DNA from: Archivesica marissinica
Taxonomy: Eukaryota > Mollusca > Bivalvia > Venerida > Vesicomyidae
Assembly (NCBI GenBank): GCA_014843695.1
Contig: CM026387.1
Coordinates: 81,213,128 to 81,277,127 of the forward strand
Direction of reading: 5' to 3'
Length of the DNA stretch: 64,000 nucleotides
Position 1 is the stretch's first letter. Each line of letters begins with the position of its first letter. The position numbers were made by a program, and so were the translations under genes. A model generated the notes under the pieces. That model searched no databases. It was not told the DNA's origin and worked only from the letters and a program-made list of their open reading frames with translations. Of the stretch, positions 10,501 to 52,524 are shown piece after piece.

Positions 10501-13500
10501 TTTTGCTGTGTCAACAAACCGCGTATACGACGTTTGTTTATTAGTTAAACTACTCAGTATTTGAGGCAAATATGTGGGGGATAATTATACAATATAATAG
10601 GAAATTATATTCTGTAGAAATTTGTGTTTTCACTGATGTATTGTCGCTTTAACTACATGTTAGTTTATACAAATTTACTTTAGCTCGATTGCGAAACAAG
10701 TTCTTACAACTTATATTAATCACTCTCGAGACCTCATTCCTGATGGAATTCATCGCCGCGAAGGAGATAGAAGAGGCAATGTGGAATTTAAATGCCTTGC
10801 CTAAGGGCACAATCGTAACAGCTCCTGCAGACCTTTCGTACCTGAAGCGAACGCGCTACCACTGCGCTATCACGACTTCCAATTTATTCGGTGTTCTATG
10901 TTTTTAAACTGTCCATTCCCGTACACTGGGATTTACGGGTACACTGCCGTACATGAATTAATTTCACTCAGTGTTGATATTCTATTAACCATGGCCGAGC
11001 ATTGTTGATCATCTGATATCCCCAGAACTACACAATGACATGTGGGAATATTTGAATCTGGATCTGGAATAATGTTATTCATTTAAGTGGACTATACTAA
11101 TCACGAGTTGTACATGTACGTGTAGGAAACTAGAAATGTTGGTAACTAGAGATTTGGTTTGAAAAAATAAACGTTGTCTCCCCCACTCATTTTGCCACAG
11201 TGGAGTGAGTAATGGACATTAAATATATGAAGTAATTGCAATAAAGAGTCATATTCTAGTAGTAAATCAACTAGAAATCTTTCAACCGGAACAATATTCA
11301 CAATATGCAAAACTAGACATCATACTGGCTCTTCATGCCAAGATTGGTAAAACACGTTATGTTATTCGGGAGATAAAGCACAGGCAAGCTTTGTGTTATA
11401 AACATGTTAAAATTGCTGTTAATCCGGAAAAATCACCCAACCGGAACGGTATTAAAATATGCACAACTATACATCATACTGTTGCTTCCTGCCAAGTTGG
11501 AGAACATGCAGCAAGGGGTTATAGATATGAAGCGTGGACACGTTTTGTTTCATAAATATGTTCAGAATTTGGCGCAAAATGATAAAGCGGAAAATGGCAA
11601 TGGCAAAAACAGTATTTCTCTCCCATCCATATTGACAAGCTGTTAGTGCACACAATCCACAGTGACAAACTATTAGTACATACAATCCATAGTGACAAGC
11701 TCTGTTAGTACATAAAATCCACAGTGACAAGCTGTTAGTACATACAATCCACAGTGACATACTGTTAGTACATACAATCCACAGTGACATACTGTTAGTA
11801 CATACAATCCACAGTGACATACTGTTAGTACATACAATCCACAGTGACAAGGTGTTAGTACATACAATCCACAGTGACAAACTGTTAGTACATACAATCC
11901 ACAGTGACAAACTGTTAGTACATACAATCCACAGTGACAAACTGTTAGTACATACAATCCACAGTGACAAACTGTTAGTACATACAATCCACAGTGACAA
12001 GGTGTTAGTACATACAATCCACAGTGACAAACTGTTAGTACATACAATCCACAGTGACAAGCTGTTAGTACATACAATCCACAGTGACAAGGTGTTAGTA
12101 CATACAATCCACAGTGACATACTGTTAGTACATACAATCCACAGTGACAAGCTGTTAGTACATACAATCCACAGTGACATACTGTTAGTACATACAATCC
12201 ACAGTGACAAACTGTTAGTACATACAATCCACAGTGACAAGGTGTTAGTACTTACCATCCACAGTGGCATACAGTGTTTGATTGTTATTTTATCTTCTCT
12301 CTCAGAGGCACACACATGCTCAAGGAATAACTTTACAACAAGAACTCTACTCCATAATCCCCTGAAAAAACGGAATGGATGAAAAGGTTACTACCTATTA
12401 ATGTGTCCATCACCCATAATTACGTTCAAGTGCACGAATTTGTAGAAAGGGTTTATATATTCTAAAGATAGATGGCTGGATAATACAAGCAGTGTGGAGG
12501 TTCGTTTTACTCAGATGGTTAGTTCCAAGCAATGTCAAAGAGCTTCGAATTACACATACATGTACATATATTATAGACTGTCATCAGTTCAAATTAAATT
12601 AGACCAGATTACTTATTAATTACAACATTTTCAAATTCAATTATCACAATCCAATTTTCTGGTTCTGAGTGAATCTACACTAACTTTGCCCTTCGTACAG
12701 ACTGGAAGCTATGAGCCCCATACAAATTGGAGTCTTCCCCATGTAGACTGATCACTTTCTCTACCACTGGTCTGTATCGGTGAACTCTGTTCAACCAATG
12801 GGAGCGCACTCTTGAATTGTTCAGGTCTGTTCCTTTTGGTGCTATGTTCTCTAGTAGTAGACACAATGCAGCAAATGTCTACAACAAAAAACATACTGAA
12901 TTTGTAGATATGAATGATATTTTTAATTTCAACACCCACTAATCATCATTACTTGCAGCCTCCATAATTGAGCTTATATCTATTTGTCCTCGTTTGGGCT
13001 TAAAATCACACCACTACCTTACTTCACATAGTGACTTCCAATGACCCCCGTCCAGACAGTATTCCATGCCCAGGTGGGAACCCATGTAGAAACATCAACT
13101 TGCTGCCGGATGAATCACTCCTAGTAATGAAATAATATGTCACCCCCAGTAGGATTCAATCAAAGTGATGAGCGTAATTAAGTAACAAGTGATGCTCATG
13201 CATTGGAGTTAGCCATATGGACGAGCGCCGTTATGCATCCTGCAACGGGAAAGAGTCAATATTTTAAGTTAAAAACAGTTTTCAATCACTATTTTTGTTT
13301 AACTGTCAGCTCCGCTGGAGCCGTTAAAATTGTGCCCTTAGGCAAGGCATTTCAATTCCACATTGTCTCTTCTCTCTCCATCGTGGCGATGGATTCCATC
13401 AGGAATGAGGTCTCGAGAGTTATTAATATATGTTGTAAGAATTTGTTTCGCAATCGAGCTAAAATAAATGTGTATAAACTAACTGTCACCGATTTCACAG

Positions 13501-25500: not shown

Positions 25501-28500
25501 AACTCCTGCCATCAGTTTGGAGTGGGTTGTTACCTATAAAGAGATAACTTGTAACAAAAGTATTTCTGGAATGACTTCAGCTTCAAGATACAGTTAATTA
25601 TTTTTCTGCGTATTTGTACATTTACATCCGTATTTAAAATAGTTCTGGGCTAATTTCGCTGACAGTGCTGAAGCATGGTTCAATAGCATTCCGTTACGAC
25701 TATCGGTCACATTGTGCAACTGTCACGTGACTGGACCAATAGACAAACAAAAGTAATCTAAATTAAATATGTACGCGGTACTAAGTTGCTATGGAAATAT
25801 TACAAGAATATAATTAATATATATATTTTTTAACTTTCTTAATAATATTTAATATTCTGAAGTTGCGATTCTATATCAGTGTGATCTGTAATTCTTACTT
25901 GGGCAAAGAGCCGCTCACATTTCTGTTTGGCTAGTTTCATCTCAACGTACGCTATAAGACTGTCATGTGATTGTCTATGGAAATACCAATCTTTAAGTAA
26001 TTTCGTCTCTTCATTCGGCAGACTACTTTTGTCTAGTCGAACCAGTGAATCCGGAGTGGCACACCATAGCAACACAAACTTTGCTTCTTCAAGAATCTTC
26101 ATAATAATACAAAACAAATGTCTTTAATATAATATTATAATAATAATATATATATGGCATTAGTAGACAATTGAAATCATGACAACCTTGAGAAATGTGC
26201 TAATGTATTTGCTATAAATTCATTACCATTAATTTATTATTTAACGTCAAACTTGTTCGAAAGACCATGTCTATTAAAGAGATCACTTGCATTAAGATAC
26301 CATTTTTTCAATTTATGTGGTATTAAGAGACTGTATTGTGCCTATCGCTCTTTGGTGGTGTCTTAATACACATTTGACAGTATTGTATTTTATATGTTAC
26401 TATATGCCTACTGATTGCAGGTCTATATTGGATATCGAACGCTTCCGCCTACCACGGAGTTGCAGAAAGAATACGGAGTTGCAGACAGAATACGCTAATA
26501 GTCATGATGAAAGATTGGGAAGAGTATCTATCTATCTACAATGTCAATAAGCGAAGGTGTGTGCGTACATCTACTCACTGCGCATGCACCATGGCTGTTG
26601 TCACACGGTGAGCATCTAGATCAAAGTAATGATGTAATTGTTGGAGGGTTTCTTGTTGATAACATATTAGGTTGCACTTATTTTACATATAACCGTATAT
26701 ATGATCAATAAACTATACTTAAAATGGGCATACATGAACACTATTTAATAGTATTTATGCAGTATTGACCAAATTGTATTATCAAGATTTTGATGATCAG
26801 CACATTAGCAATTAATGATTTCGAAATATTGATCAAGCTCAAAGATTATAAAGATGAATCAGTTATATGTTATATTTCGGGTTTTACGCCTGCATCAGCA
26901 CCATTTTGGACTATATCGCCGGCGGGCAGTTTACCTAACAACACCTTTCCTGGGCAGGCTCCAGCAGTTAACCAGTACTTGGGTGCACCAACCTCCGTAA
27001 GAATCTGCCAACTTTTTCATATAAATGAGACAGGGTCTGAGCGGGGCTCGAACCCGTGACCATCAGTGATGATAGGTTACAGTGGTATACAAGTCAGCGA
27101 CCTTAACCACTCGACCACGAAGGCGGTAAAGATGAATCAAGAGTATCATTTTGTATTAGTTTGTCCATATTATATTGATCTCTGAACGTGACATTTACAT
27201 AAATATTATTGTTCCTGAACACATATTAACACATTGAAAACTCTTATAATAGCAACACAAAAAAGCAATACATGTATTAACAAGTTAGCTAAATATATAT
27301 TTGAATACAAATAAAATAAATGATATTAATTAGTAAATATGATGCATATCTGAAACAATTATACTAATCTGCTTTATTCTATCACATGATATTGCAAAAT
27401 ATAGCTAGTTATTACTTATATTTTGAATTTTACAATATTATTTGCCTACAACAATACTGTCTCCCACCCAGGTTGTGTTTTCCAGTCTGATATTATGTTT
27501 CCTGGTTTGATACGGTCACCAAAAAAGAAACGACTTTAAGTATCATAACTAGTTCCTGAGAAAATAACGCATGCGCAGTTGAAACTGCCAACTTTTTCAT
27601 ATAAATGAGACACGGCCTGAGCGGGGCTCGAACACGTGACCATCAGAGATGATAGGTTACAGTGGTATACAAGTCAGCGACCGTAACCACTCGACCACGG
27701 AAGCGGACTAATTATTATTATGTATTGCATTATTGTTATTATATTGTAGTACTATTATAGTTACCTGTGTAGATATATCCTTCTCATCTTTTGCATGTCC
27801 ATGTTTTTCCCACACATCCAGAACAATTGCGGAGCATGTGTCATCATGGTAACCTATAAAAACATCTCCCAATTTCGTAGTATCTTTCTCCCTCCTGAAA
27901 CCAAGTTACATACATGTACAATCATATTCTATACAAGTATGCCTTAAGTATCTCGTGGCATAGAACATACATTTACTAAATGTATTCGATTGTCTATTTT
28001 TAATGTGCTTGTTATCCCAGCATTTGATTATGAATGCAATACTTTTGACTTTATATTATGGCTATACGATATTGACTCATACTGTGTGTTATAAGGCCTG
28101 TCTTTCAGAAATAACTATCTGCTTTGTTAGCTAGAATGCAATAATTTATTCTAAACTGTTAACATAAAAAGAGCTTTCAAACAGATCTGCCACAATCCTG
28201 TATTTCACTGTGTTACAAACAATACCAACAAGTATATTTATACATACAACTGTCTCATTCCTGTATGTCTCTGTGTTACAAACAATACATGTATCAACAC
28301 GTATATTTATACATACAACTGTCACATTCCTGTATGTCTCTGTGTTACAAACAATACATGTACCAACAAGTATATTTATACATACAACTGTCACATTCCT
28401 GTATGTCTCTGTGTTACAAACAATACATGTACCAACAAGTATATTTATACATACAACTGTCGCATTCCTGTATGTCTCTGTTTTACAAACTCTGCAGCCC

Positions 28501-31500
28501 AATCCTTCAAGCTTTGCACAACATTCTGTTGTTCCAAGGACAGCATGGTGTTTATTGTGAGGAAATGTTTCTCCAGACGGTTGATCAGGGGTATAGGGAA
28601 CTTCTTGTACACTGTTTGCTTCTCTGCTACAACAATTAATCTACAACAGGAAATTAAAATTATCTTTCATTGTCCACCTGAGTATTATACTTAACATAGC
28701 ATAACTTTTAATGAGAGTCATCAACTAGAGCTAGGCTGTCTGATTAGCGCAGTGGCGCGCTCGCCTCTCACCAATGCAACCCGGGTTCGATCCTCGGACC
28801 AGGGAAGTATGTGAGATGGTACGGTGGTCGCTGGATCGGAAAAGAGTGTTTCTCCCCGAGTACTCCGTTTTCCCCCCACACGAATAACCACATATACGCT
28901 TTCATCCGCGCCAACGAGTGATTAATATAAGTTGTTAGAACTTGCTTCACAATCGTTGTAAAATAAATAAAGCTTAAACTTAAACTAGAGTGATATGGAA
29001 ACTAAAAGTAAGATTTTACAGTTACTGGAAAACTTCCTAAATAGATTCAATGTTCATGCATCCCATAAGAACAAAAGGAGAATATTAAATTCTACACTCT
29101 CCATTGATAGATACGTTTCTAACACAATAACAAGTTGAGACATCTCATTGACACAGATTACAACTGTCTAGAGTATCCTGTAATGCCTAAAGATACTCAA
29201 CTACATAATTGAATGTAATATTTTATACATGAACATTTAATTCTCTGGCAACAACAATCTAAAAATGCAGTCCTTCACTCCAGAATTCCAAAGTTCACAG
29301 ACTTTCAAAGCTATTTAAATTCTATGACGTAACCAAAGAAAGGTAGCAATTAAAACAATCTTCTACATCTTACCTGAAGTTTCTGTGCACAGGACATTTG
29401 ACTCTGTGTGTTCCCAGTCCGAGATCGACATATCTCTCTCCCCCAAAGTACACATAGTACTGATTGAGTGCGTCATACAGACTCTCATACAAGTTCTCCA
29501 GGTTTAGGAGGACTACCGTGTTCCCTGTCTCCATACACACCTTAATCTTGTTGATATTACGACACACCTATATAATGACATAATAAACATCAGTCGAGCA
29601 TACTTGCAGAGTATACTTGCAGGTCCGATCCTCCGTCTGATCCTAAGAAAAGTAATAGTCTTTCAGATGCGACTTTAAACCGAGGTAACGTGTCGGTGCT
29701 TTACACCGTGTACGTAAAGCACCAGAGGAGACTCTGGAATGGGTCTCTCTCTGTATCATTGCACTATCCTCCAAAAATCTAAAATGACTAATCTCTTCAG
29801 GACAATTATAGCTCCAAAAGGACTGTATTTAGAATTATCTGCTCAGATGATTACAAATTCTGATTAATGTCAGCAATTTCCATAATCTGATTTTAACTAA
29901 ACCTATCCACATTTAAACTGCATTTTGTGATTTTATTATTTTTGAATGACCTTATATCATCAATAACTTTGTCTCAAGGTGGTTTACACTAGCATTGTAG
30001 CAGTTTTAATTTTGTTCTCGAAGTAGATGTGAGTTAATACATGTAGATGTATTGGGTTTTTTAAAGTTAATTTAATACAACGGTTATATAACTCCCTCTC
30101 CCTGGTTTCCCAGTTCAACTGTTAACCATTGGACTAGTTATCCGTCTGCTCGCTTCAAAAACAAATACTGTATTATATCATGATAAAAACCGCATGAATC
30201 CAGTTTAAACTGCCTGGCCATAAAGTTGGGTGCTCCGTACAGTCTGATATTTGCTATGGTGTTGATTAGTTTAGGTTAACGTAAATGTGGTCATTCGTGT
30301 GGGAGGAAACCAGAGTACCCATCTCACATACTTCCCAGTCCGAGGATCGAACCCGGGTTGCATTGGTGAGAAGCGAGCGTGCTAACCACTGCGCCAACAA
30401 ATCATCACCATTAAGCATATACCATATTGCAAGGCGCAGCCACTTTGTGACACCACAAATAGGGCCTGGATTTGAACATGCCCTCAATCATCTGAGTAAC
30501 CTTTATTGACGAATGTGCAATTAAACATTTGAACTATGCAAATAATAACATATACGTACATGTACACACTATCATATACGCAGTTACGCTCTGCATATAT
30601 TTCGCAGGTCAACCATCTGTTCTTTCATTGGTTAGTGCACCTATTTTTATATCAGAATTAATTATCAACAACTTCAAATGTGTAAATGTGTACCTGTGTG
30701 TATTCCTGGTCACTTCTAAAGCTGCTACCAAATATGGTAATAGGTCTGATGTCACTGCTCCTAGATAGTATCTGTTGTTGTATGATGGATAGCGCTCCAT
30801 AGTTCTCAGTTAGCAACAGTAGGTACCGACTCTCACTGTATATAACAGACATTGGAATTGTGCATTAAAACTAACGATTTTGACATAAAAACAATCATTA
30901 CCGTCCTTTCTACCAACAGATTATGGCCTGAACATGGTTTCGAGTCTTATAATTGAGTGCTAAAAAACATTTCTTCTTTCTAAAATGTGTTAACATCATA
31001 ATTACGTTTTAGAAAAGAAAGCACTCTGAAGTCGTGGAAGTCGTGATAGCGTTCGCTTCAGGTGCGAAAGGTCCGGAGTTCGAGCCCCACTGGAGCAGTT
31101 ACGATTGTGCCCTTAGGCAAGGCATTTAAATTCCACGTTGCCTCTTCTCTCTCCCTCGTGGCGATGGATTCCATCAGGAATGAGGTCTCGAGAGTGATTT
31201 ATATAAGTTGAAATAACTTGTTCCGCAATCGAGCTAAAATAAATTTGTATAAACTAAGCACTCTGACAGTGACCATTTCTTCAACTTGCACGGGACATGT
31301 AATTTATGCTTGGTCTGATTTCCATTTTATCAACCCGTCTTATATGCGAGTGCATGCCAAAACCCACATATTTCAGGACAAAGTAGGGGGTCGTCTTATA
31401 GGCGTGATCGCCATACAGGCGAGGATGGACGATACCCAAGATGTGTAAAACAGAGGCACCAGCAAAACATATTACAACTACTTTAATGTAAACTATTAAT

Positions 31501-34500
31501 TTCCATTAGCAGTGTCATTATGAACTTTCAATACTATAATACTATAGCTGTACCTTTCCATCTTATTTGTATCAAACAGGCATGCTTGAACAAGTCCAGC
31601 AGGGCTACAGTCCGGGTCGGAATGCTTGGGCTGAAATGAGATGCATGACAATCATTCTAAAACGCTATAATTGTTCTAACATCACCCTTGGTTATTGTCC
31701 TTATCTTGTAATGCATTAATTATCGAGTGTTTACGAATACATCATAGGGGGCTATCCGACAAATTCCAGCAATATGACTTTCTCACTTCAATTAATCCTG
31801 CAGTATTGTTCAGGAGCCACCCCAACCCAAATGAAAACGAATACAATTATTGAAACTATGGCAACATACATTTAATGCATAGTACAAATAGTAGATAAAT
31901 GTACAGTTTATTCAAATTAACCATGATCATCTTAACAATAATACTATATAGCACAATTGGGGAAACTATATTTATTAATCCTTTGCCTACAAGTCCATTG
32001 CATATATGTAAGTTGAAGTATCATTTTAACTATAGGTCAACCTCCATTATGTGTACAATAAGCTTAGATCAAATTTCATATTGTCGTACTCATATGCTTA
32101 AGCACTCTGTATTTTGTCTGACATGACGACAGTGTAAATTGTGATATAATACAGTCTATAATCTGATAACACATATGCATAGTAGGTATTGTTTCAAATA
32201 ATGAAACATTTGTATATTTTCTTGTGAATGCTTTTATGTATATATGTGTTGTACAATGATGAACTATTATATTATAGGTTATATTTCGGATTTTACGTCT
32301 GCATCAGCACCATTTCGGGCTATATCGCCGGCGGGCAGTTTACCTAACAACACCTTTCCTGGGCAGGCTACAGCGGATAACCAGTACTTGGGTGCATCAA
32401 CCTCCGTAAGAAACTGCCAACTTTTTCATATAAATGAGACACGGCCTGAGTGGGGCTCGAACCCGTGACCATCAGTGATGATAGGTTACAGTGGTATACA
32501 AGTCAGCGACCTTAACCACTCGACCACGGAGGCGGACCTGTGTTGTACAATGATGAACTATTTAGTTGAAATTGGAAACTAAATGTCTTCTTCTTATTCA
32601 TCTATAATTATCAACACAAAAATAAAATATGACAAATAATAGGACTAATTCATTTAAAGCATCATTTACCTTTTCTTCAAAATGAATGATTTGTGCCAGG
32701 TTCCTCTTGAAGTCTTGCACAGGATCCACCTTGTCAAGTCCACCGAAGTTTCTTTTGATTGCATGCAACATCTCATGCCACGTCGGTTTCTGCTTCGATT
32801 TCGCCACAAAACTGTACACCATCTTTACCAAACTTAAAACACACATACTGATCATTATGTCAACATTACAATGAGGTTGCTACAAATCTATTGTGTCATT
32901 TTCAAATCACTTTAACAATGCGTTGAAAATCAACTAAAGTAAAATAAAATGGGGATGTGATTAGAATACTTACAACAGACAGCATACACACATATGGTTT
33001 TGTGCAAGAAAGAGAAATGGATAGTCTCCTCTGGTTCTTTTACATGCATGGTGTAAATCACCGACACGAGACCTCTGTTTAAAGTACCATCTGAAAGACT
33101 GTTAATTTTATTAGGGTCAGACAGGGGATCGAACCTGCGATCCCTGGATTATAGCTAAGTATGCACTAATGGACTACAGTTATTACAACTATTGTGGCGA
33201 GTATTTGCGTGACGATGTTCGATTATCACGGACTATTTCCTACGGCGTACGGATGCGCTAATGTGACAAGGCTCAAACATATACTGTCTTAATAGCAAAA
33301 TTCCAAGACTCGTTTTATAAATAGTTCAACAAATCTGCCTGCTCAGTATTTCAAGCTTACATGGGCTGCCCAGATCGGAATCACACTCATCATCAATACT
33401 CATATTGCATAGTCTCACAAGTTGCACACACCTAACATCTACAATAATACTTGTCATAAGTTGCACTACAAATCAATTCAAAAGTTAATTTGGCATAAAC
33501 ATATATGTTCATAGCCAGCAAAAACATGTATGGCGGCATACAATTACATACATAAACAATGACAATTCAACACATGAAAAAAGCATGTATAAATACATTC
33601 ATATTGAGTATGAAAGTTTTAGTATAATGCATTCATTCTACAAATAGGAACATATTTAAAGTCACGCTAACACACATTTATCTATATACACAAATGTGAG
33701 ACCATGTCATTCAGCAGCTAAGTTAATTTGCTAGATAAATATATTTAGACAATTTATTAATAATTCCACTTTGTGAACTATTTAACAATGTTTTAAACTT
33801 AACCAAGTGAATCAATTTCTTAGTTAGTTAAAATGTACATCTACAAGCTGGATAACTTAAAAGAACATCTCTATCTATTCAGTTGTTGAAAGGTTGTCAT
33901 TATTGGGGCCATGGTGGGGGTAGAACTGGAGGGGATGTTCTGCTTCAGTGTTTGGGGTGATGGTAGTTTAAATTCAGCAGTCTAATATATCGCTCAGTGC
34001 TAGGAATGAATTTCACATGAAGATTGTCAACACCTGGTATTGCTCTACTGAGCAAAGCTATGATAAAATATAAAACAAGTGGAATATTAATTTTCTATTC
34101 TCATTACAACATTTCAAACTCCTAGTGCCTAACATAATATACAGCTACATGTAGTTTTAATAATTAAATGGCAACATAGATGCAACATTCTTTCAGTCTG
34201 GTGGTTTTATATGCCTGTGGTCTAGTGAAACCTTTGACATGCATACAATAACAATACAATCTGACATTACCTATAGAAATCTGACCTTACCTATAGAAAT
34301 CTGACATTATCTATAGAAAATCTGACCTTACCTGTAGAAATCTGACCTTACCTATAGAAATCTGACCGTACCTATAGAAATCTCGAAGTCCATAGAATTC
34401 CCTCATATTTTGCGATGCTTTCTCAAATATTTCTAGGTAAGAAATTGCCATAGGCTCAATTAAGGGATCTATCCAGTCGCCAAGCTTGTCATTTGTACTG

Positions 34501-34604
34501 CAAATACCACTGCAAAACAGATGCATACAACGGATAATAGGCAAATATCACTGATTGTAGACAACGACCGCTGGTTATAGGTCTATAAGCTGATATGAAA
34601 TAAC

Positions 34605-34699
<95 letters not shown>

Positions 34700-37600
34700 C
34701 GAATATACTGGATTGTACGGATCCATATATACTATTGTGTTCCATATACGGGAACATACACTCCAATACAGTCAGTTGTATGTGATCTGTACACTATTGT
34801 GCTCCACATACAGGAACATACACTCCAATACAGTCAGGTGTATGTGATCTGTACACTATTTTGCACTCCATATACAGGACCATACACTCCCATACAGTCA
34901 GGTGTATGTGATATGTACACTATTGTGCTACATATACAGGAACATACACTATAATACAGTCTGGTGTATGTGATCTGTACACTAATGTACTCCACATACA
35001 GGAACATACACTCCCATACAGTCAGTTGTATGTGATCTGTACACTATTGTACTCCATATACAGGAACATACACTCCAATACAGTCAGTTGTATGTGATCT
35101 GTACACTATTGTGTTACATATACAGGAAAATACACTCCCATACAGTCAGGTGTATGTTATCTGTACACTATTGTACTCCATATACAGGAACATATATTAC
35201 AATACAGTCAGTTGTATGTGATCTGTACACTATTGTGCTACATATACCGGAACATACACTCCAATACTGTCAGTTGTATGTGATCTGTACACTATTGTGC
35301 TCCACATACAGGAACATACACTCCCATACAGTCAGGTGTGTGTGATCTGTACACTATTGTACTCCACATACAGGAACATACACTACAATACAGTCAGGTG
35401 TATGTGATATGTACACTATTGTGCTCCATATACAGGAACATACACTCCCATACAGTCAGGTGTATGTGATATGTACACTATTGTGCTACATATACAGGAA
35501 CATACACTATAATACAGTCAGTTGTATGTGATCTGTACACTATTGTACTCCACATACAGGAACATACACTCCAATACAGTCAGGTGTATGTGATCAGTAC
35601 ACTATTGTACTCCACATACATGAACATACATTACAATACAGTCAGTTGTATGTGATCTGTACACTATTGTGCTCCATATACCGGAACCTACATTACAATA
35701 CAATATGGTGTATGTGATCTGTACACTATTGTGCTCCACATACAGGAACATACACTCCCATACAGTCAGGTGTGTGTGATCTGTACACTATTGTGCTCCT
35801 TATACAGGAACATACACTCCCATACAGTCAGGTGTATGTGATCTGTACACTATTGTGCTACATATACAGGAACATACACTATAATACAGTCAGTTGTATG
35901 TGATCTGTACACTATTGTACTCCACATACAGGAACATACACTCCCATACAGTCAGGTGTATGTTATCTGTACACAATTGTACTCCATATACAGGAACATA
36001 CATTACAATAAGTCAGTTGTATGTGATATGTACACTATTGTACTCCACATACAGGAACATACACTCCAATACAGTCAGGTGTATGTGATCTGTACAATAT
36101 TGTACTCCACATACAGGAACATACACTCCAATACAGTCTGGTGTATGTGATCTGTACACTAATGTACTCCACATACAGGAACATACACTCCCATACAGTC
36201 AGTTGTATGTGATCTGTACACTATTGTACTCCATATACAGGAACATACACTCCAATACAGTCAGTTGTATGTGATCTGTACACTATTGTGTTACATATAC
36301 AGGAAAATACACTCCCATACAGTCAGGTGTATGTTATCTGTACACTATTGTACTCCATATACAGGAACATATATTACAATACAGTCAGTTGTATGTGATC
36401 TGTACACTATTGTGCTACATATACCGGAACATACACTCCAATACTGTCAGTTGTATGTGATCTGTACACTATTGTGCTCCACATACAGGAACATACACTC
36501 CCATACAGTCAGGTGTGTGTGATCTGTACACTATTGTACTCCACATACAGGAACATACACTACAATACAGTCAGGTGTATGTGATATGTACACTATTGTG
36601 CTCCATATACAGGAACATACACTCCCATACAGTCAGGTGTATGTGATCTGTACACTATTGTGCTACATATACAGGAACATACACTATAATACAGTCAGTT
36701 GTATGTGATCTGTACACTATTGTACTCCACATACAGGAACATACACTCCAATACAGTCAGGTGTATGTGATCAGTACACTATTGTACTCCACATACATGA
36801 ACATACATTACAATACAGTCAGTTGTATGTGATCTGTACACTATTGTGCTCCATATACCGGAACCTACATTACAATACAATATGGTGTATGTGATATGTA
36901 CACTATTGTGCTCCACATACAGGAACATACACTCCCATACAGTCAGGTGTGTGTGATCTGTACACTATTGTACTCCACATACAGGAACATACACTACAAT
37001 ACAGTCAGGTGTATGTGATATGTACACTATTGTGCTCCATATACAGGAACATACACTACAATACAGTCAGGTGTATGTGATATGTACACTATTGTGCTCC
37101 ATATACAGGAACATACACTCCCATACAGTCAGGTGTATGTGATCTGTACACTATTGTGCTACATATACAGGAACATACACTATAATACAGTCAGTTGTAT
37201 GTGATCTGTACACTATTGTACTAAACATACAGGAACATACACTCCCATACAGTCAGGTGTATGTTATCTGTACACTATTGTACTCCATATACAGGAACAT
37301 ACATTACAATAAGTCAGTTGTATGTGATATGTACACTATTGTACTCCACATACAGGAACATACACTCCAATACAGTCAGGTGTATGTGATCTGTACACTA
37401 TTGTACTCCACATACAGGAACATACACTCCAATACAGTCAGGTGTATGTGATCTGTACACTATTGTACTCCACATACAGGAACATACACTCCAATAGTCA
37501 GGTGTATGTGATCAGTACACTATTGTACTCCACATACATGAACATACATTACTATACAGTCAGTTGTATGTGATCTGTACACTATTGTGCTCCATATACC

Positions 37601-40600
37601 GGAACCTACATTACAATACAATATGGTGTATGTGATATGTACACTATTGTGCTCCACATACAGGAACATACACTCCCATACAGTCAGGTGTGTGTGATCT
37701 GTACACTATTGTACTCCACATACAGGAACATACTCTACAATACAGTCAGGTGTATGTGATATGTACACTATTGTGCTCCATATACAGGAACATACACTCC
37801 CATACAGTCAGGTGTATGTGATCTGTACACTATTGTGCTACATATACAGGAACATACACTATAATACAGTCAGTTGTATGTGATCTGTACACTATTGTAC
37901 TCCACATACAGGAACATACACTCCAATACAGTCAGGTGTATGTGATCAGTACACTATTGTACTCCACATACATGAACATACATTACAATACAGTCAGTTG
38001 TATGTGATCTGTACACTATTGTGCTCCATATACCGGAACATACATTACAATACAATATGGTGTATGTGATCTGTACACTATTGTGCTCCACATACAGGAA
38101 CATACACTCCCATACAGTCAGGTGTGTGTGATCTGTACACTATTGTACTCCACATACAGGAACATACACTACAATACAGTCAGGTGTATGTGATATGTAC
38201 ACTATTGTGCTCCATATACAGGAACATACACTCCCATACAGTCAGGTGTATGTGATCTGTACACTATTGTGCTACATATACAGGAACATACACTATAATA
38301 CAGTCAGTTGTATGTGATCTGTACACTATTGTACTCCACATACAGGAACATACACTCCAATACAGTCAGGTGTATGTGATCAGTACACTATTGTACTCCA
38401 CATACATGAACATACATTACAATACAGTCAGTTGTATGTGATCTGTACACTATTGTGCTCCATATACCGGAACATACATTACAATACAATATGGTGTATG
38501 TGATCTGTACACTATTGTGCTCCACATACAGGAACATACACTCCCATACAGTCAGGTGTGTGTGATCTGTACACTATTGTACTCCACATACAGGAACATA
38601 CACTACAATACAGTCAGGTGTATGTGATATGTACACTATTGTGCTCCATATACAGGAACATACACTCCCATACAGTCAGGTGTATGTGATCTGTACACTA
38701 TTGTGCTACATATACAGGAACATACACTATAATACAGTCAGTTGTATGTGATATGTACACTATTGTGCTACATATACAGGACCATACACCCCAATACAGT
38801 CAGTTGTATGTGATCTGTACACGAGTGTGCTACATATACAGGGACATACACTCCAATACAGTCAGTTGTATGTGATCTGTACACACAGGTGTATATCTGT
38901 ACAGTCTCATGTATGAGACACTTTTCAACAGTTTGTGTATTGTAAGAAGGTGGTTGCTTAGTACAGTTGCTTGTTTATTGGAGGTTAAATACATTGTATA
39001 TGAAGCAATACAATTTCGGTAATCTGAAATATGTCTGTTTAGCATACTTTTGTGGATTAATAGATGTGACTGCTAACACGATTATAACTGTAGACACATA
39101 TGATAGATATAAGCAACCACCACTTACAATAGACACATGCCATAGATAATTGTCAAATTAACACAATACCACTGCAAATAGGCAAGACAAAACAACTACA
39201 CACAGATAGCATAATGACATCATTGACAAGTAAAATCACTTTAATATTGATATAAATATGTTGTTGAATTAAAGTATTTTGAACGATAATCAGTTCATAA
39301 AAAGAAAACAAATTGAAGGAGAGCATAGATATAATTACCGGGCACTGTTAACGAGTTCCTCCTGATCGGGTACCTCTCTCTGTACCAGAATTCCACGATT
39401 CATCTTGGCCGGATCTAGAGCCCAGTTGGATATACCAATGAAAGCCACCTTTAAGTGAAACAATAGGCACCAGGTTTAGCCATAAAACTGCCATCTCTGT
39501 GTGTTTATAAGTCATTTACCTATTTATCAAAACAGGTTTCTGCATATTTTATCTTACAACAAACTGCATATCACTATTAGGATTAAAGCTACATGCACTT
39601 GCTTTCTATTGATCAAAATAATATTTAATTAACATAAGCTGCTGTGGCTTTCAATTCAATCAACTTGTCTTGATAGTTGTATTGTATGGATGTTATATGT
39701 ACAGATGTTATATGTCATGTGTATCTTGATAAATAAAATATGTTTAAACCAAAATAATAATGATGAAAAAATCAACCTTTTTATGTTTATCTGGTTTTTC
39801 ATCACCTTGGCAACCATCTTCCAGCAGAGGGTGAAGTGTCTGTAAATTACGTAAACAATCATATTTGTATCTATCAAGTGAGTTACAAGGACCACTGTGT
39901 TATTGCAACAACACAATAATAGGTTCTACTAATAAAACTGTTAAATTTATAGCTATAATATGATAACACCACTGATTATAAGCAAAGGGACTTATTACAC
40001 GTACCACATGTCACAATGATAAGCAAGAGGACTTATTACACGCAACACATGTCACAATTATAATCAAGGGGAGACTTATTACACGTACCACATGGCACAA
40101 TGATAAGCAAGGGGACTTATTACACGTACCACATGGCACAATGATAAGCAAGAGGACTTATTACAGGCACCACATGGCACAATGATAAGCAAGGGGACTT
40201 ATTACATGCTCCACATGGCACAATGATAAGCAAGGGGACTTATTACACGCAACACATGGCACAATGATAAGCAATGGGAGACTTATTACAGGCACCACAT
40301 GGCACAATGATAAGCAAGGGGAGACTTATTACAGGCACCACATGGCACACTTATAAGCAAGGGGAGACTTATTACACGCAACACATGTCACAATTATAAG
40401 CAAGGAGAGACTTATTACAGGTTCCACATGCCACAATTATAAGCAAGGAGAGACTTATTACAGGCACCACATGCCACAATGATAAGCAAGAGGACTTATT
40501 ACAGGCACCACATGCCACAATGATAAGCAAGGAGAGACCTATTACAGGCACCACATGCCACAATTATAAGCAAGGAGAGACTTATTACAGGCACCACATG

Positions 40601-43600: not shown

Positions 43601-46600
43601 ACAAACCTTGTTTTATGTGAGAGAGATTACACCATATGTATCCTTACAAACCTTGTTTTATGTGAGAGAGATTACACCATATGTATCCCTACAAACCTTC
43701 ATTTATTTGCGAGAGAGATTACACCATATGTATCCTACAAACCTTGTTTTATGTGAGAGAGATTACACCATATGTATCCTTACAAACCTTGTTTTATGTG
43801 AGAGAGATTACACCATATTTATCCTTACAAACCTTGTTTTATGTGAGAGAGATTACACCATATGTATCCCTACAAACCTTGTTTTATGTGAGAGAGATTA
43901 CACCATATTTATCCTTACAAACCTTGTTTTATGTGAGAGAGATTACACCATATGTATCCTTACAAACCTTGTTTTATGTGAGAGAGATTACACCATATGT
44001 ATCCCTACAATTTAACAAACCTTGTTTCAGGCATGGATGTGCACACAAATAGAATCAGTTGTACAGCTTCACCACTTGAATAAATCCAACCCTTGTAGGG
44101 ATTGGACCTTTAAACAGATGATGGAAAGAAAGCTATTGATAGTGCACAACTTAATCATCACTCAGCCACAAATAATTCCTGAGTAGGAAATCATAAAAAA
44201 GTATTTATTTGATAGGTCAGTATGAACATGCTATGTACGAAAACATATTCCAAAGAAACCTTGTCAATTAGGCATAGGTATTAATTATATAGTAGTACCC
44301 ACTAATTAAGGTCATTGGGGATACCCGCTAACTCTGCTTATAAATTTCATATATCATTATCTTACTTGTTTCAGCTCCTTGAACAATTCCTCACGGGCGG
44401 CATTCCCCTGCATGGCATCAGATACGATAGTTTTGGCCAGGGACTTTGAACTTCCGGGCTTTCCAACAAGAAAGAGGGGCACACGAAGCTCGATACAAAC
44501 AACCATCATGAACACATTCTCCTTGAGTGCCATGTTCCGAGCAATGTTCTTCTCCAGGTGTACATGGTCGAGGAACACTTCCTGACAACTGAGAGATAAT
44601 AGTAAACATGATCACTGACAACCTTCTCCAGGTGTACATGGTCGAGGACCAACTCCTGACAACTGAGAGATAATAGCCAACATGATCACTGACAACCTTC
44701 TGCAGGTGTACATGGTCGAGGAACACCTCCTGACAACTGAGAGATAATAGTAAACATGATCACTGACAACCTTCTGCAGGTGTACATGGTCGAGGACCAA
44801 CTTCTGACAACTGAGAGATAATAGTAAACATGATCGCTGACAACCTTCTGCAGGTGTACATGGTTGAGGACCAACTCCTGACAACTGAGAGATAATAGCC
44901 AACATGATCACTGTCAACCTTCTACATGTTAACATGGTCGAGGCCCAACTTCTGACAACTGAGAGATAATAGTAAACATGATCACTGATAACCTTCTGCA
45001 GGTGTGCATGGTCGAGGACCAACTTCTGACAACTGAGAGATAATAGTAAACATGATCACTGATAAACTTCTGCAGGTGTACATGGTCGAGGACCAACTCC
45101 TGACAACTGAGAGATAATAGTAAACATGATCACTGATAACCTTTTAACATTGCCAGCAGATATTTGAAATTAACATTTCACTGAAATATATGACGTCAAC
45201 ACATATTTATACTACTTTTTGTAAGCATGTAAATGCTCGAGATTAAACCACATGTACTCTTGTATCTAGTATAGGTTCATTAGCACCTAGTAGTGAGATA
45301 TCATGCTCAGAGATGTGCAGTTTAGTATCGTGTTAACATATATTAGCCATGCCTGCACCTACCTGCCCGATTTGCCACTGCTTGACCTGTTTGCTCGAAA
45401 GGTTGGCCAAATGTGAAGGCACATCACTATTAGTTTAATACGAGCAGGACTAGTAAAATCATTGTTATAATTTATAGCTAAAGTGTAAAAAGTATTGGTG
45501 TCATTATTTTATATTTGGCTTAGAAATGGAAATATTTACCTTTCGATTTCTTCTTTTATCTGGTCATCCATGCCAGGCAGCTTACATGGTGTACGGAAAT
45601 GTTTTGCAATATGTGCTCGGTACTGCGGTCTGGTTTTCAGACAGGCATGATAGCACACACCCAGGGCCAGTATGAGAGATCGGGTTATATCATCCACTTT
45701 GTCTTGCTGTAAACATACAGGCTTTAGTGCATTTTAAATTAATCACTAGTATACTGGTATCAATTACACTTAATCTCAGAGAATATATCTCCAAGAACAA
45801 ATCAGCATGATGTTGATATATGATGTCAAAAAGATGGTTTCATGTATATTGTCATATGATGGTCATTTCAGCCTATGCCATACACATGTTATGTTATTCT
45901 TACAAAGTCACAAGGTAATAAAAAGTGGCATGCTTATAATACACACATGTTTTAATAAGAGCATGTTTTAATGTTGCTCTCGGTTCCCTGGTAATGGGAT
46001 GTATATTAGTCATTTTCTGCTTTGAAGAATTGAGTAAGATACAGATGACGCTCCAATTACAGAAGTCTTCCTAAACATTGCATAGCACTATTGCATGGGA
46101 TCTTGGTTCATTGTTTCGTCCCATAGAGAGTCAAGAAAATTAGGGTAGGCCAGGAACTCAGTCCGCTTTTACCAATGGTCAACTGATCCACCACTAGAGC
46201 ACACTTCTAGTTTCTACACCTTGACTACAACTCTTTATAGAGTCATTATCTGTCTCAAGTACAACATTATGGAAGGCTCTCATTAAGCAGATAGCTGTTC
46301 AAATAACTTGAACACTTTTAGAAGAACCTACTATTTCAAGAGGTGATTCGTTGGTCGTCAACTTTAATTTACTGACATTGAGCAAAGATCTGTATATTTA
46401 AATACATTATATGTATCTGGTTCCAAATATGCTATTTTGTTCTTTAAGATTTGTGTTTTTTTGATCTTCAATGAAGTGTTATTTTTTGTTCTAGCAACTT
46501 TTTCAGTCCACAAACTGTTTTCGTAAATAGTATGTACATGTATATGTGTTTCACAGAACCCTGAGAGAGAATTGAGCTTGACCATCTGTGTTGCGTTTTT

Positions 46601-49038: not shown

Positions 49039-52000
49039 TCATATGAGCTCATTAATTGTTCGTTCTCTTTCTTTAGAAGCGAAATGCAAATATTTTGATA
49101 GATTATGAATTAATTTTGGGTTACTAGAGCTCATTAGATTATCAAATTTGTGTAGTGTCGGCCAATGACAAAAATATGGCTTAAAAAGTGTTCTACGTAA
49201 ATCATAGTATTTTGGACAGACCAGTAGGAAGTGAAATTCATTTTCGATTACATTCATAGTACATTGCAAACATTTTCGATCTTCTCTGGGAATATTAACG
49301 TGCCTACCCTTTTCTATCGCTAGATTATGCGAAGATAACCGGAATTTTGTCAGACTAATTCTATATTTATTTATATTTATGATTTTTAGATAGTCCTCTA
49401 GTATGAATTCATGTTTGTATACACTATATGTAGATAGTCTATTTGAGTTATTAATATTGGAGTACCATACTTGTTTATACATATCCAATATTCTAAGTTT
49501 GATCATTTGAAAATTAAAATTATAATTGGTTTGATTTAACCATACATCCGACATTCCTATTTCATTCAATATAGTGTTCACCTGATATGCCCAGTTATTT
49601 CCATTGTATGAGTTATTAATATCAGCATCGTATTTTAGAGTATTATACATATATTTAATTAAGGTGTTATTTTCTAATTTTAATATTTTTAGCCAATGTT
49701 TGATGATAGTTAATTTACGTTGTATTTTCATTGGGTGTCTTCCTAATTCCCCGTATAATCCATCAAGATTTGTAGATTTTTTAACACATAGTATTTTTCG
49801 CATGAATTTACAATGTACAAGCTCTATATTTTTACAGTCATGATAACCAAATACTTCTGAACTATAGCTTAATATTGAACCTACCATACTATCAAATAAT
49901 TTACATTTTTCGGATATAGATAATTCTAATTGGTTGAATACTATGAATAAATTGTGTAATGCGTATAATGAGTGCTGCGCAAGTTTCTGTTGGGTACGAA
50001 CCCAATGGCCATTTTTAAACAAATGTATCCCTAAATACTTAAACGATTTTACTACTTCTAAAACTGTATTATTAAGAATAAAATCATGAGATGTATGTCG
50101 TCCTAGTTCAAATATCATAATCTTTGTCTTTTTGGTATTGACTGTTAGACCCCAAGTTGTGCAGTACGTGTGTAAGTCGCTTAACATAGACTGAAGTGCT
50201 TCCGGAGTATGTGCAAATATTGCAGCATCATCCGCAAATAATAATATATACAATTTCATATCATCTAACGTAAATAAACCGTCGATGTTATTATCTATGT
50301 TATTTACAATATCATTAACAAAGAATAGAAATAGCAAACTTGAACTCCGATCACCTTGTTTTGCTCCTATATTGGATTCGAAAAATGGAGAAAGATTTTT
50401 ATTAAACCTGACAGCTGCCTTAACGGCGCTATACATATTCTTCATAGCATTTACGTATTTAGAGCTAACTTGTTCACGTAGTAATTTATTAAATATAAAC
50501 GATCTTTCAAGTTTGTCGAAACATTTTTCGAAATCGATAAAGGCTACATAGAGCTTCTTATGAGAATTTAGTGTTTTTGCAATAATAGAATGTAACATGA
50601 ATATGCAGTCTGCAGTCGATTTTCCCTTTTGAAATCCATATTGGTTATCTATAATTTTCTTGTGTTTAATAGACCATTTTGTTAAACGGTTTAATAATAC
50701 CTGTGAGTAAATTTTTGAGATAATATTTATTAATGTTATACCTCTATAATTTTTGGGATCCTCAATGTGTCCCCCTTTGAACACTGGAACTATAATACCC
50801 GATCCCCAAGACTTTGGATATTCTCCATTTTGAAAGATTCTATTGAACAGTGCTAATATTAGAGGCGAGATTTCAGGAAATGAGATTTTATATATTTCTG
50901 CAATTATTGAATCTAGACCACTGCTTTTATTATTTTGAGAATAAACAGCGTCCTTAATTTCTAACATTGTGATTTCCTGATCGAGATCATCATCTTGAAT
51001 GTCAGAGTTTATATTTATATGTTCTGGTGTTTCCTCGTTGCCGGTACTGTATAATGTTTTAAAATGGTTATATAAATCTGTTGTATTTAGATTTATTGCT
51101 GTTGGGCGCTTTTTCATATACCGACTCTTTACCTTCTTCCAAAAGTTTCGTGGTTGGGATTTACTTAGGTTTTTTAATGTTTGCTTTTGCTTTATATTAT
51201 AATTATTTTTTTGAGTTCGTTTTATACGATTATACTGTGCCTTACAATTGATATATTCTTGCCTCAATTGAATATCAACTTTATTTCTTATAAAAGCGTT
51301 TCTAGCAAATTTGAACCTCAATCTTGCATTATAGCAGTCAATGTTGAACCTCAATCTTGCATTATAGCAGTCAATGTTGAACCTCAATCTTGCATTATAG
51401 CAGTCAATGTTGAACCACGGTTTCTTATTATATCCCTTGTATGAATTTATATTAGGATTAATTTTACGTGTTTTTCCAAATACATGTTTTGTACAGTCAT
51501 ATAGAATATCAGTAAAGGCATCTGCTATTGAATCAATATTATCATTATTGTGAATATCATCGATCAGACAGGAAATATCATCTTTGTTGGTAAACAATGT
51601 TTGTTGAAATTCATTTACTTTCGACTCATCCCAGTTTATAAATGTCTCCGTGCCTACCGAATTAGTGTTACTTGTCTGTTGTTGATTCATCGTAATATTT
51701 AATGTCAATCCAGAATGGTCTGAAAACTCATTTGTTTGCAATATACAAAAATCAGAAACACAATGAAAATCATCAATATTTAACAATAGGTAATCCACGA
51801 CACTTGACCCATTTAATGAATGGAATGTATAATCTCCTATATCTCGGTCGCTATGTAGACGACCGTTACCTATAACAAACGAAGTTGAATGGCAGAGCTC
51901 AATCAAGCGTCGGCCGTGATTATCGGTCACATGATCCTTCGAAACACGTGGAGGTATGTTTACAACATTTGACAGTTGGTTGTCATTATCAATATACATG

Positions 52001-52524
52001 TCATAATCTAACAAATCAGATGAATTAGAAGTACGACTATTTAAATCTCCAATGACGAAGCATTTTCCTAGTAACTTATATTTTTCTAGACCCGATTCTA
52101 TTTCTTCAAAGAAGTCAAAATTGTTGGTATCAATTACGGTAGAATTATTGGGCGGAATATACGTACAACAAATATAAACATTCTCCTGAAATTCAAATAA
52201 ATCTTTACATAGTTCGACCCATATAATTCCATTTTGGATTTTTTCTATGATCTTTATACTGTTTCTAAGTGATTGTTTATAGTATATACTTATTCCACCG
52301 CTATATCGTCCTTTACGGATGTTAGCAGTTTTATTTCCATGCAAATGTTCACTGTCATAGTCACTTATGTCAAGATTAATATGTGTATTATTTGAAATCC
52401 ATGTTTCCGATAAAAATATGATATCATAATTTTTAATGTTGTTAATGAAATCTGGGTCTAGTATTTTACGAGCTAACCCATTCACGTTCCATGATATGAT
52501 TTTTAAGTCCTTCTCTTGACATCT
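49039..52524 (-). CDS. LINE A ORF2: endonuclease and reverse transcriptase
   Basis: The open frame begins right after ORF1's TAG with RCQEKDLKIISWNVNGLAR; the first ATG-like start is a GTG at 52485, giving 1,148 codons. Endonuclease residues seen: IISWNVNGL, FLSETW, GDLNSR, and SDHSGL near residue 255. RT: KNYRGITLINIISKIYSQVL, QYGFQKGKSTADCIF, motif A YVAFIDFEKCFDKL, motif C LLFADDAAI. C-terminal knuckle CLQCTMNVIENEFHFLLVC. The 11-residue block FNIDCYNARLR is repeated three times near residue 365. All catalytic motifs are intact, so this copy may be young. Confidence 0.95.
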   Translation of the reverse strand, partial: RCQEKDLKIISWNVNGLARKILDPDFINNIKNYDIIFLSETWISNNTHINLDISDYDSEHLHGNKTANIRKGRYSGGISIYYKQSLRNSIKIIEKIQNGIIWVELCKDLFEFQENVYICCTYIPPNNSTVIDTNNFDFFEEIESGLEKYKLLGKCFVIGDLNSRTSNSSDLLDYDMYIDNDNQLSNVVNIPPRVSKDHVTDNHGRRLIELCHSTSFVIGNGRLHSDRDIGDYTFHSLNGSSVVDYLLLNIDDFHCVSDFCILQTNEFSDHSGLTLNITMNQQQTSNTNSVGTETFINWDESKVNEFQQTLFTNKDDISCLIDDIHNNDNIDSIADAFTDILYDCTKHVFGKTRKINPNINSYKGYNKKPWFNIDCYNARLRFNIDCYNARLRFNIDCYNARLRFKFARNAFIRNKVDIQLRQEYINCKAQYNRIKRTQKNNYNIKQKQTLKNLSKSQPRNFWKKVKSRYMKKRPTAINLNTTDLYNHFKTLYSTGNEETPEHININSDIQDDDLDQEITMLEIKDAVYSQNNKSSGLDSIIAEIYKISFPEISPLILALFNRIFQNGEYPKSWGSGIIVPVFKGGHIEDPKNYRGITLINIISKIYSQVLLNRLTKWSIKHKKIIDNQYGFQKGKSTADCIFMLHSIIAKTLNSHKKLYVAFIDFEKCFDKLERSFIFNKLLREQVSSKYVNAMKNMYSAVKAAVRFNKNLSPFFESNIGAKQGDRSSSLLFLFFVNDIVNNIDNNIDGLFTLDDMKLYILLFADDAAIFAHTPEALQSMLSDLHTYCTTWGLTVNTKKTKIMIFELGRHTSHDFILNNTVLEVVKSFKYLGIHLFKNGHWVRTQQKLAQHSLYALHNLFIVFNQLELSISEKCKLFDSMVGSILSYSSEVFGYHDCKNIELVHCKFMRKILCVKKSTNLDGLYGELGRHPMKIQRKLTIIKHWLKILKLENNTLIKYMYNTLKYDADINNSYNGNNWAYQVNTILNEIGMSDVWLNQTNYNFNFQMIKLRILDMYKQVWYSNINNSNRLSTYSVYKHEFILEDYLKIININKYRISLTKFRLSSHNLAIEKGRHVNIPREDRKCLQCTMNVIENEFHFLLVCPKYYDLRRTLFKPYFCHWPTLHKFDNLMSSSNPKLIHNLSKYLHFASKERERTINELI
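51311..51409 (-). repeat. 33-bp in-frame triplication inside LINE A ORF2
   Basis: Three perfect 33-bp copies starting at 51311, 51344 and 51377, each containing TTGAACCTCAATCTTGCATT. In the protein they give three tandem FNIDCYNARLR blocks between endonuclease and RT. The frame is preserved. Confidence 0.97.

What the first reader, a model, noticed from the sequence alone, without database searches (positions are those of the whole stretch)
44366..45140. Exon 5 acceptor and exon start amplified into a 74-bp minisatellite: one real and seven decoy splice acceptors
Seen: TGACAACTGAGAG recurs eight times at 74-bp steps. The lowest copy is the real 3' splice site of the AAA4 Walker A exon. Each other unit carries the CTCTCAG acceptor plus about 40 nt that reads LDHVHLQK, clearly exon-derived (exon: LDHVHLEK). 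74 is not a multiple of three, and a TGTCAGTGA in most units puts a stop in one frame, so use of a decoy would usually truncate the protein just before the P-loop. The spliceosome must choose between eight near-identical acceptors in a catalytic exon. Inference: array length could tune, or silence, this ATPase.
Basis: partly seen in the sequence, partly recalled or inferred. Interest (0 to 1): 0.82.

Follow-up and report, generated by a model that had tools for sequence, protein, structure and literature searches.

The report
Splice sites amplified into tandem arrays
In a clam-like genome, the start of a key exon of the giant RNF213 gene, splice signal included, has been copied into a row of near-identical repeats whose number differs between the gene's copies, a natural test of how cells pick the right splice site; no RNA data were available to show what the extra sites do.

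Summary
Confirmed. On the minus strand, 44549-45143 holds eight 74-bp units, each 34 nt of intron end (TTATCTCTCAG) plus 40 nt of exon start. The lowest copy is the acceptor of the RNF213 exon with GKPGSSKS; the other seven are decoys of equal predicted strength (7.0-7.2 bits against 7.0). All seven would truncate or frameshift the protein.

It is not an isolated assembly error: all nine close copies of this exon found in the genome (two of them letter-identical) carry the array, with 4-11 acceptors. The real copy always encodes SCQEVFLDHVHLEK; 0 of 59 decoys do.

Three donor sites of the same gene (exons 9, 14, 27 of my model) are amplified too; exon 9 has 6-25 units in five gene copies.

Best explanation: length-changing minisatellites captured exon edges and are tolerated because the exon-proximal site supplies enough correct mRNA, while distal copies drift. 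Regulation by array length is possible but untested: no RNA was available. Repeats at exon-intron boundaries are known in human paralogues (PMC2812944); this is a strong variant.

The parts
45540..45706 (-). Exon 4 (167 nt), donor GAAAG|GTAAAT
   Evidence: Homology to RNF213 and splice signals (start by inspection)
44589..45539 (-). Intron 4, 951 nt, more than half of it array
44549..45143 (-). 74-bp x 8 minisatellite; unit = 34 nt intron end + 40 nt exon start
   Evidence: TRF, unit listing
44663..45107 (-). Seven decoy acceptors, AG ending at 44663, 44737, 44811, 44885, 44959, 45033, 45107
44366..44588 (-). Exon 5 (223 nt) with Walker A GKPGSSKS; first 40 nt are the last repeat unit; real acceptor AG ends at 44589, donor CAA|GTAAGA
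34372..34509 (-). Exon 9 of the partial model; its donor TAG|GTACGG is the first unit of an array
34258..34383 (-). 20-bp x 6.2 donor array; four decoy donors, three scoring above the real one
28455..28640 (-). Exon 14 of the partial model; donor GTT|GTATGT
   Evidence: weaker support, since the junction lies in a length-variable loop
28187..28490 (-). 69-bp x 4.5 donor array; real donor and three identical decoys
12256..12361 (-). Exon 27 of the partial model; donor ATG|GTAAGT
11625..12266 (-). 30-bp x 21.3 donor array; 19 decoy donors counted, 18 of them ATT|GTATGT, weaker than the real one

Best explanation
A tandem duplication of 74 bp straddling the intron 4/exon 5 border of an RNF213-like gene copied a 3' splice site together with the exon start, and further duplication or unequal exchange made a minisatellite of it. 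The array is shared by all close copies of the gene that I found and keeps changing length. Shown: structure, homology, equal predicted acceptor strength, presence at nine of nine close exon-5 copies, length differences, loss of the open frame from every decoy, conservation of the real copy alone. Inferred: the exon-proximal acceptor supplies enough productive mRNA because, in genes with long introns, sites tend to pair across the exon (intron 4 is 653-1166 nt over nine loci, intron 5 is 1749 nt in the window), so distal copies are largely passed over, leakage is lost as truncated message, and the array is tolerated rather than used. The same reading covers the three donor arrays, in each of which the donor that I place by homology is the one nearest the exon body.
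For: Array and exon model. Equal strength: real 7.0 bits, decoys 7.0-7.2, five of seven decoys letter-identical from -20 to +3. Nine of nine exon-5 copies at 97-100% protein identity carry it, with 8, 9, 9, 9, 11, 9, 5, 4 and 4 acceptors. Real copy encodes SCQEVFLDHVHLEK in 9 of 9, decoys in 0 of 59. 0 of 59 decoys keep the frame open. The window copy and L002 have an identical 840-nt upstream flank but 8 and 9 units. Homologues show no unit-sized insertion at exon 4/5 (120 examined), 9/10 (115 of 116 without any length change) or 27/28 (56 of 64 without any; of the other eight, three differ by one residue and five have a gap at a test position). Arrays in this gene region hold 113 exonic bases against 1298 expected from random placement, P 0.0002 (approximate exon ends). 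PMC9225289 reports pairing of the sites closest across the exon when introns are long (abstract, passages and section 9).
Against: No RNA was seen, so use of the exon-proximal site is inferred from conservation. For 3' sites PMC9225289 reports an overall upstream preference that is only reduced, not said to be reversed, when both introns are long, so decoy use may be sizeable. 58 of 59 decoys keep their AG, and letters from -14 to +7 vary less among 29 of 31 distinct decoys (6 of 108 minor letters; fixed-window P 0.003), which could mean constraint; but the window was chosen after seeing the data and over any window P is 0.07. Edge contacts exceed a conditional null (5 against 1.7, P 0.02; 4 against 0.95 for arrays of 100 bp or more, P 0.0135), which could mean that exon edges are favoured places; the 40-nt limit used was post hoc. 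The exon 14 junction is length-variable among homologues (15 of 114 without change).
Confidence: 0.63

Rival explanations
1. Splicing rheostat: decoys catch a share of splicing events, those messages carry early stops and decay, and array length sets the output of each gene copy.
For: Decoys equal the real site in predicted strength; all 59 are non-productive; length differs between copies; 58 of 59 keep AG; 3' sites show upstream preference in general.
Against: No RNA evidence; length changes between near-identical copies suggest drift; similar arrays at donors of the same gene range from weaker to stronger than the real site, with no shared design.
Confidence: 0.14
2. Helper array: extra sites recruit U1 or U2AF and strengthen definition of the neighbouring exon, the real site being used.
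For: All units carry whole splice-site letters next to the exon; in exon 9 three of four window decoys score above the real donor.
Against: Untested; exon 27 decoys are much weaker than the real donor (2.31 against 8.12); copy number ranges widely.
Confidence: 0.07
3. Coding use: distal sites are spliced to lengthen the protein, above all at exon 27, where 17 of 19 decoys would add ten residues per unit in frame.
For: Open frame through most of the exon-27 array; one open in-frame decoy (60 nt) in each of four exon-9 copies outside the window.
Against: 0 of 59 decoys at exon 5 and 0 of 3 at exon 14 stay open; homologues show no such insert at exon 27/28; exon-27 decoys are weak.
Confidence: 0.05
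4. Assembly artefact or decayed gene copy.
For: L008 and L009 are letter-identical over 3953 bases on one contig, perhaps a doubled assembly; the copy at C2:77719159 is followed, after exon 6, by matches to earlier parts of the protein, so it may be partial. No reads could be checked.
Against: Units differ by point changes and by a 72-bp and a 67-bp unit; other loci have other lengths; frame-consistent splice sites placed for 31 of 32 introns of the window copy.
Confidence: 0.04

Closest known systems
Variable internal tandem repeats at exon-intron boundaries of human genes in segmental duplications (PMC2812944; abstract and passages seen)
   Same: Minisatellites that vary between recent paralogues and lie at exon-intron boundaries, with alternative splicing reported
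   Different: There novel introns with transcript support, units of 30 bp repeated 4 times on average; here splice sites of equal predicted strength repeated 4-11 times (acceptor) or up to 25 times (donor), no transcript evidence
Human introns derived from tandem arrays (Zhuo et al. 2007; title seen only, in the reference list and as a search term; content recalled)
   Same: Tandem copies that carry splice sites
   Different: No new intron is seen here; an existing intron border is multiplied
Engineered tests with competing or duplicated splice sites (Reed and Maniatis as described in PMC9225289; Lang and Spritz 1983, title only)
   Same: Competing sites in cis; the outcome is expected to depend on distance across intron or exon
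   Different: Natural, many-copy, and of different length between gene copies; outcome not measured

Membership tests
RNF213-like gene | Sequence homology of the AAA region and collinear exons | tested here: met
   PDB chains named RNF213, E 1.5e-70; up to 33 matched pieces with three clam proteins
RNF213-like gene | RING and RZ-type zinc finger parts | not tested
   Pfam was run on eight reading frames only; relatives list PF20173
Minisatellite | Head-to-tail units of roughly 10-100 bp with length variation | tested here: met
   74 bp x 8.0; 4-11 acceptors over nine loci; variation between animals not tested
Variable tandem repeat at an exon-intron boundary (PMC2812944 kind) | Array overlaps the boundary and varies between paralogues | tested here: met
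Variable tandem repeat at an exon-intron boundary (PMC2812944 kind) | Alternative transcripts or novel introns with RNA support | not testable with these tools
   No RNA data on hand
Alternative 3' splice-site event | Decoy acceptors have full splice-site strength | tested here: met
   7.0-7.2 bits against 7.0 in a matrix from 31 acceptors of this gene, tested site left out
Alternative 3' splice-site event | More than one acceptor used in transcripts | not testable with these tools
   No RNA data on hand

The most novel reading that the evidence does not exclude
In this RNF213 family splice sites are evolvable elements: at least four have become arrays whose length, different between gene copies, sets how much correct message a copy yields (exons 5, 9, 14) or how many decapeptides its protein carries (exon 27), a fast-mutating dial on a gene family that I recall as involved in innate immunity.
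Probability: 0.13. Interest if true: 0.88.

Novelty: new variant of a known kind. Interest (0 to 1): 0.6.

Why it matters
How splicing picks among equal sites has been studied with engineered competitors. Here one genome holds a natural series: the same exon behind 3, 4, 7, 8 or 10 decoy acceptors, and another exon whose donor is followed by 4 to 22 decoys counted. One long-read cDNA run could tell cross-exon pairing from first-come-first-served choice, and show whether array length changes gene output. It also warns gene prediction and short-read mapping in such repeat-rich genomes.

Tried and rejected
Chance: rejected (eight exact 13-mers at 74-bp steps; nine loci). Assembly error confined to this locus: made unlikely by the other loci, with the L008/L009 identity kept as a caveat. 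Insertion of units as the normal protein form at exon 5: rejected, since every decoy shifts the frame or meets a stop; the exon-4 end used was one base short, so frames were settled. Each unit as a 40-nt mini-exon: the would-be donors AAG|GTTGTC look poor by eye and the 34-nt remainder looks too short for an intron (recalled, not computed). A branch site in the TGAT about 24 nt upstream of each acceptor is a guess from a recalled consensus. Constraint on decoy acceptors: suggestive only. Excess of arrays at exon edges: weak and post hoc. A tRNA-like look of the 71-bp array at 16953-17738: no ARAGORN gene in the window, no Rfam match in 16800-17900. Literature: the answered searches listed no paper that I recognised, from titles and abstract starts, as describing splice-site arrays in RNF213 or bivalves; only open-licence papers are held.

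Rows dropped or set aside: 2 of 31 distinct decoys (the shortened units) in the diversity count; two poorly placed donors left out of the donor matrix, one acceptor set by inspection, and one of 32 introns not placed; overlapping TRF rows merged, and rows at 2-36 and above 48221 left out of the 25 arrays; L010-L014 are the same places as L005, L006, L002, L003 and L004, and L015-L023 are the nine exon-5 places again; the four C10 matches were not examined; of the 133 matches I used four places for array-length estimates (C1:86918575, C2:78595195, C2:78216713, C2:78126447), and two further flank-bearing places (C2:81193639, C2:77870806) gave no firm estimate. Exon 9 and 14 arrays were read in four other gene copies only, those within the stretches.

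Full report
What is there. The window lies in a genome of 1.54 Gb in 2808 contigs, at C2:81213128-81277127. Its minus strand, from about 48 kb down to 0.4 kb, carries part of an RNF213-like gene. Protein relatives of exon 5 are best in Mercenaria mercenaria (96-97%) and Mactra antiquata (95%), so the animal is probably a clam; it is unnamed. Tblastn with clam proteins gave up to 33 matched pieces, and 31 of 32 introns could be placed with a consistent frame, two donors of them poorly.

The array. Tandem Repeats Finder gives 44549-45143, 74 bp x 8.0, and the eight acceptor AGs end at 44589 + 74k. A unit is 34 nt of intron end plus 40 nt of exon start. The lowest copy is the acceptor in use by homology: exon 4 + exon 5 is collinear with RNF213 at the junction, and 111 of 120 listed relatives have no length change round it, the other nine differing by one or two residues. 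With a matrix made from 31 acceptors of this very gene, the tested site left out, the eight sites score 7.0 or 7.2 bits, the real one 7.0; five of the seven decoys are letter-identical to it from -20 to +3. Within that stretch nothing sets the real site apart.

What a decoy would do. In the window, extensions of 222 and 444 nt are in frame and contain a stop; the other five shift the frame. Over all nine loci 16 of 59 decoys are in frame and 0 of 59 keep the frame open.

The same array elsewhere in the genome. A DNA search and an exon-5 protein search agree on nine places on C2, all with the array: 8 acceptors (window), 9, 9, 9, 11, 9, 5, 4 and 4. L008 and L009 are identical over 3953 bases, and L002 and L003 differ by 11 mismatches and 2 gap columns in 4252, so there are at most eight distinct sequences. 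Four further protein matches on C10 (41-44%) were not examined, and more distant copies may have been missed, since only the best candidates are scored. The window copy and L002 have identical upstream flanks (840 of 840) but differ by one whole unit: length changed there without a point change in that flank. One unit of 72 bp and one of 67 bp occur. The first 40 nt of the real exon encode SCQEVFLDHVHLEK in nine of nine. Among decoys this occurs in 0 of 59; the commonest is SCQELVLDHVHLQK (18), and eight carry a stop within these 40 nt. Over the whole real exon, pairs of loci differ by 0-2 amino-acid-changing and 0-6 silent codons. So selection on the protein is seen at the exon-proximal copy only.

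The same thing on donors. Three further arrays overlap exon ends of the gene. Exon 9 (34509-34372): the 20-bp units begin at the real donor TAG|GTACGG (7.12 bits), and three of four window decoys score higher (8.28, 10.75, 8.28; one 5.79). There are 6 units in the window and 25, 21, 16 and 16 in four other copies, the real one included; AGGTAAGG, which differs from the real AGGTACGG and is the commonest form, makes up 15, 12, 10 and 10 of them. A stricter count gives 4, 22, 20, 14 and 14 decoy donors. Exon 14 (28640-28455): 69-bp units, the real donor and three identical decoys GTT|GTATGT; the other four copies have 8, 4, 4 and 4 such sites. Exon 27 (12361-12256): 30-bp units, real ATG|GTAAGT 8.12 bits against 2.31 for 18 of 19 decoys and -0.91 for the other. 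Here 17 of 19 decoys would lengthen the protein in frame without a stop. From match coordinates, and assuming ungapped flanks, other copies have about 41 units (C1:86918575), 43 (C2:78595195 and C2:78216713) and about 104 (C2:78126447); those sequences were not read. A fifth, tiny case (25390-25418, 14-bp unit x 2.1) also clips a donor.

Is edge capture more than chance? I counted 25 arrays in the gene region, 11.8 kb. Placed at random they would hold 1298 exonic bases; they hold 113 (P 0.0002), and 7.2 would touch an exon edge against 5 seen (with approximate exon ends). So arrays are rare inside exons, and edge contacts are not in excess of plain random placement. If placements are limited to at most 40 exonic bases, 1.7 edge contacts are expected and 5 seen (P 0.02), or 0.95 and 4 for the 14 arrays of 100 bp or more (P 0.0135). 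That limit was set after seeing the data, in one gene, so the excess is a hint only.

How it most likely works. Tandem duplication across a splice border does little harm if the site next to the exon body goes on being used. Carranza, Shenasa and Hertel (PMC9225289; abstract, passages and section 9 seen) report that with long flanking introns sites closest across the exon are favoured, with short introns those closest across the intron. The introns flanking exon 5 in the window are 951 and 1749 nt, and the shortest placed intron of the gene is 241 nt. In all four arrays the donor or acceptor that I place by homology is the one nearest the exon body, with the weakest support at exon 14. Against too confident a view, that paper finds for 3' sites that the upstream preference is only reduced when both introns are long. 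Some leakage into decoys is therefore likely, and at exon 5 all of it would be non-productive. Whether leakage matters cannot be told without RNA.

Comparison. Variable tandem repeats at exon-intron boundaries of human paralogues, with alternative splicing, are in print (PMC2812944, abstract and passages), so the kind is known. What I did not find in the searches named under Tried and rejected is a case with whole splice sites of equal strength in such numbers, on several splice sites of one gene family, with a length series inside one genome. I file it as a new variant of a known kind.

Verdict.

Noticed in passing
11625-12266, 28187-28490, 34258-34383: Three donor splice sites of the same gene are multiplied in minisatellites of 30, 69 and 20 bp.
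   Followed up: partly
25390-25418: A 14-bp unit x 2.1 also overlaps a donor edge, at 25394.
   Followed up: no
34731-38884: 62-bp x 67 array; the same 119-residue frame recurs at 34986-35345 and 36163-36522, 1177 bp apart, which suggests a higher-order repeat of about 19 units.
   Followed up: no
49039-52524: Uninterrupted 1161-residue frame with endonuclease and reverse transcriptase domains, a LINE-like element.
   Followed up: no
about 53.7-54.8 kb: A run of about 1 kb of N (seen as X in the frames).
   Followed up: no
16953-17738: 71-bp x 11 array with a tRNA-like look by eye; no ARAGORN gene in the window and no Rfam match in 16800-17900.
   Followed up: partly
L024, L025, L026, L027 (C10): Four exon-5-like matches of 41-44% identity; three lie in open frames of 4023-4122 residues and one in 608, so intronless RNF213-like genes may exist.
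   Followed up: no
G000:C5:13768152-13776724, C17:26018826-26021116, C6:30308686-30315938: Long arrays about 70% similar to the exon-27 array stretch lie on other contigs; whether they are related or only alike in period was not tested.
   Followed up: no
P0001: A protein labelled Marmota monax scores 197 bits to exon 5, more than clam proteins of 96% identity, perhaps through several matching stretches.
   Followed up: no
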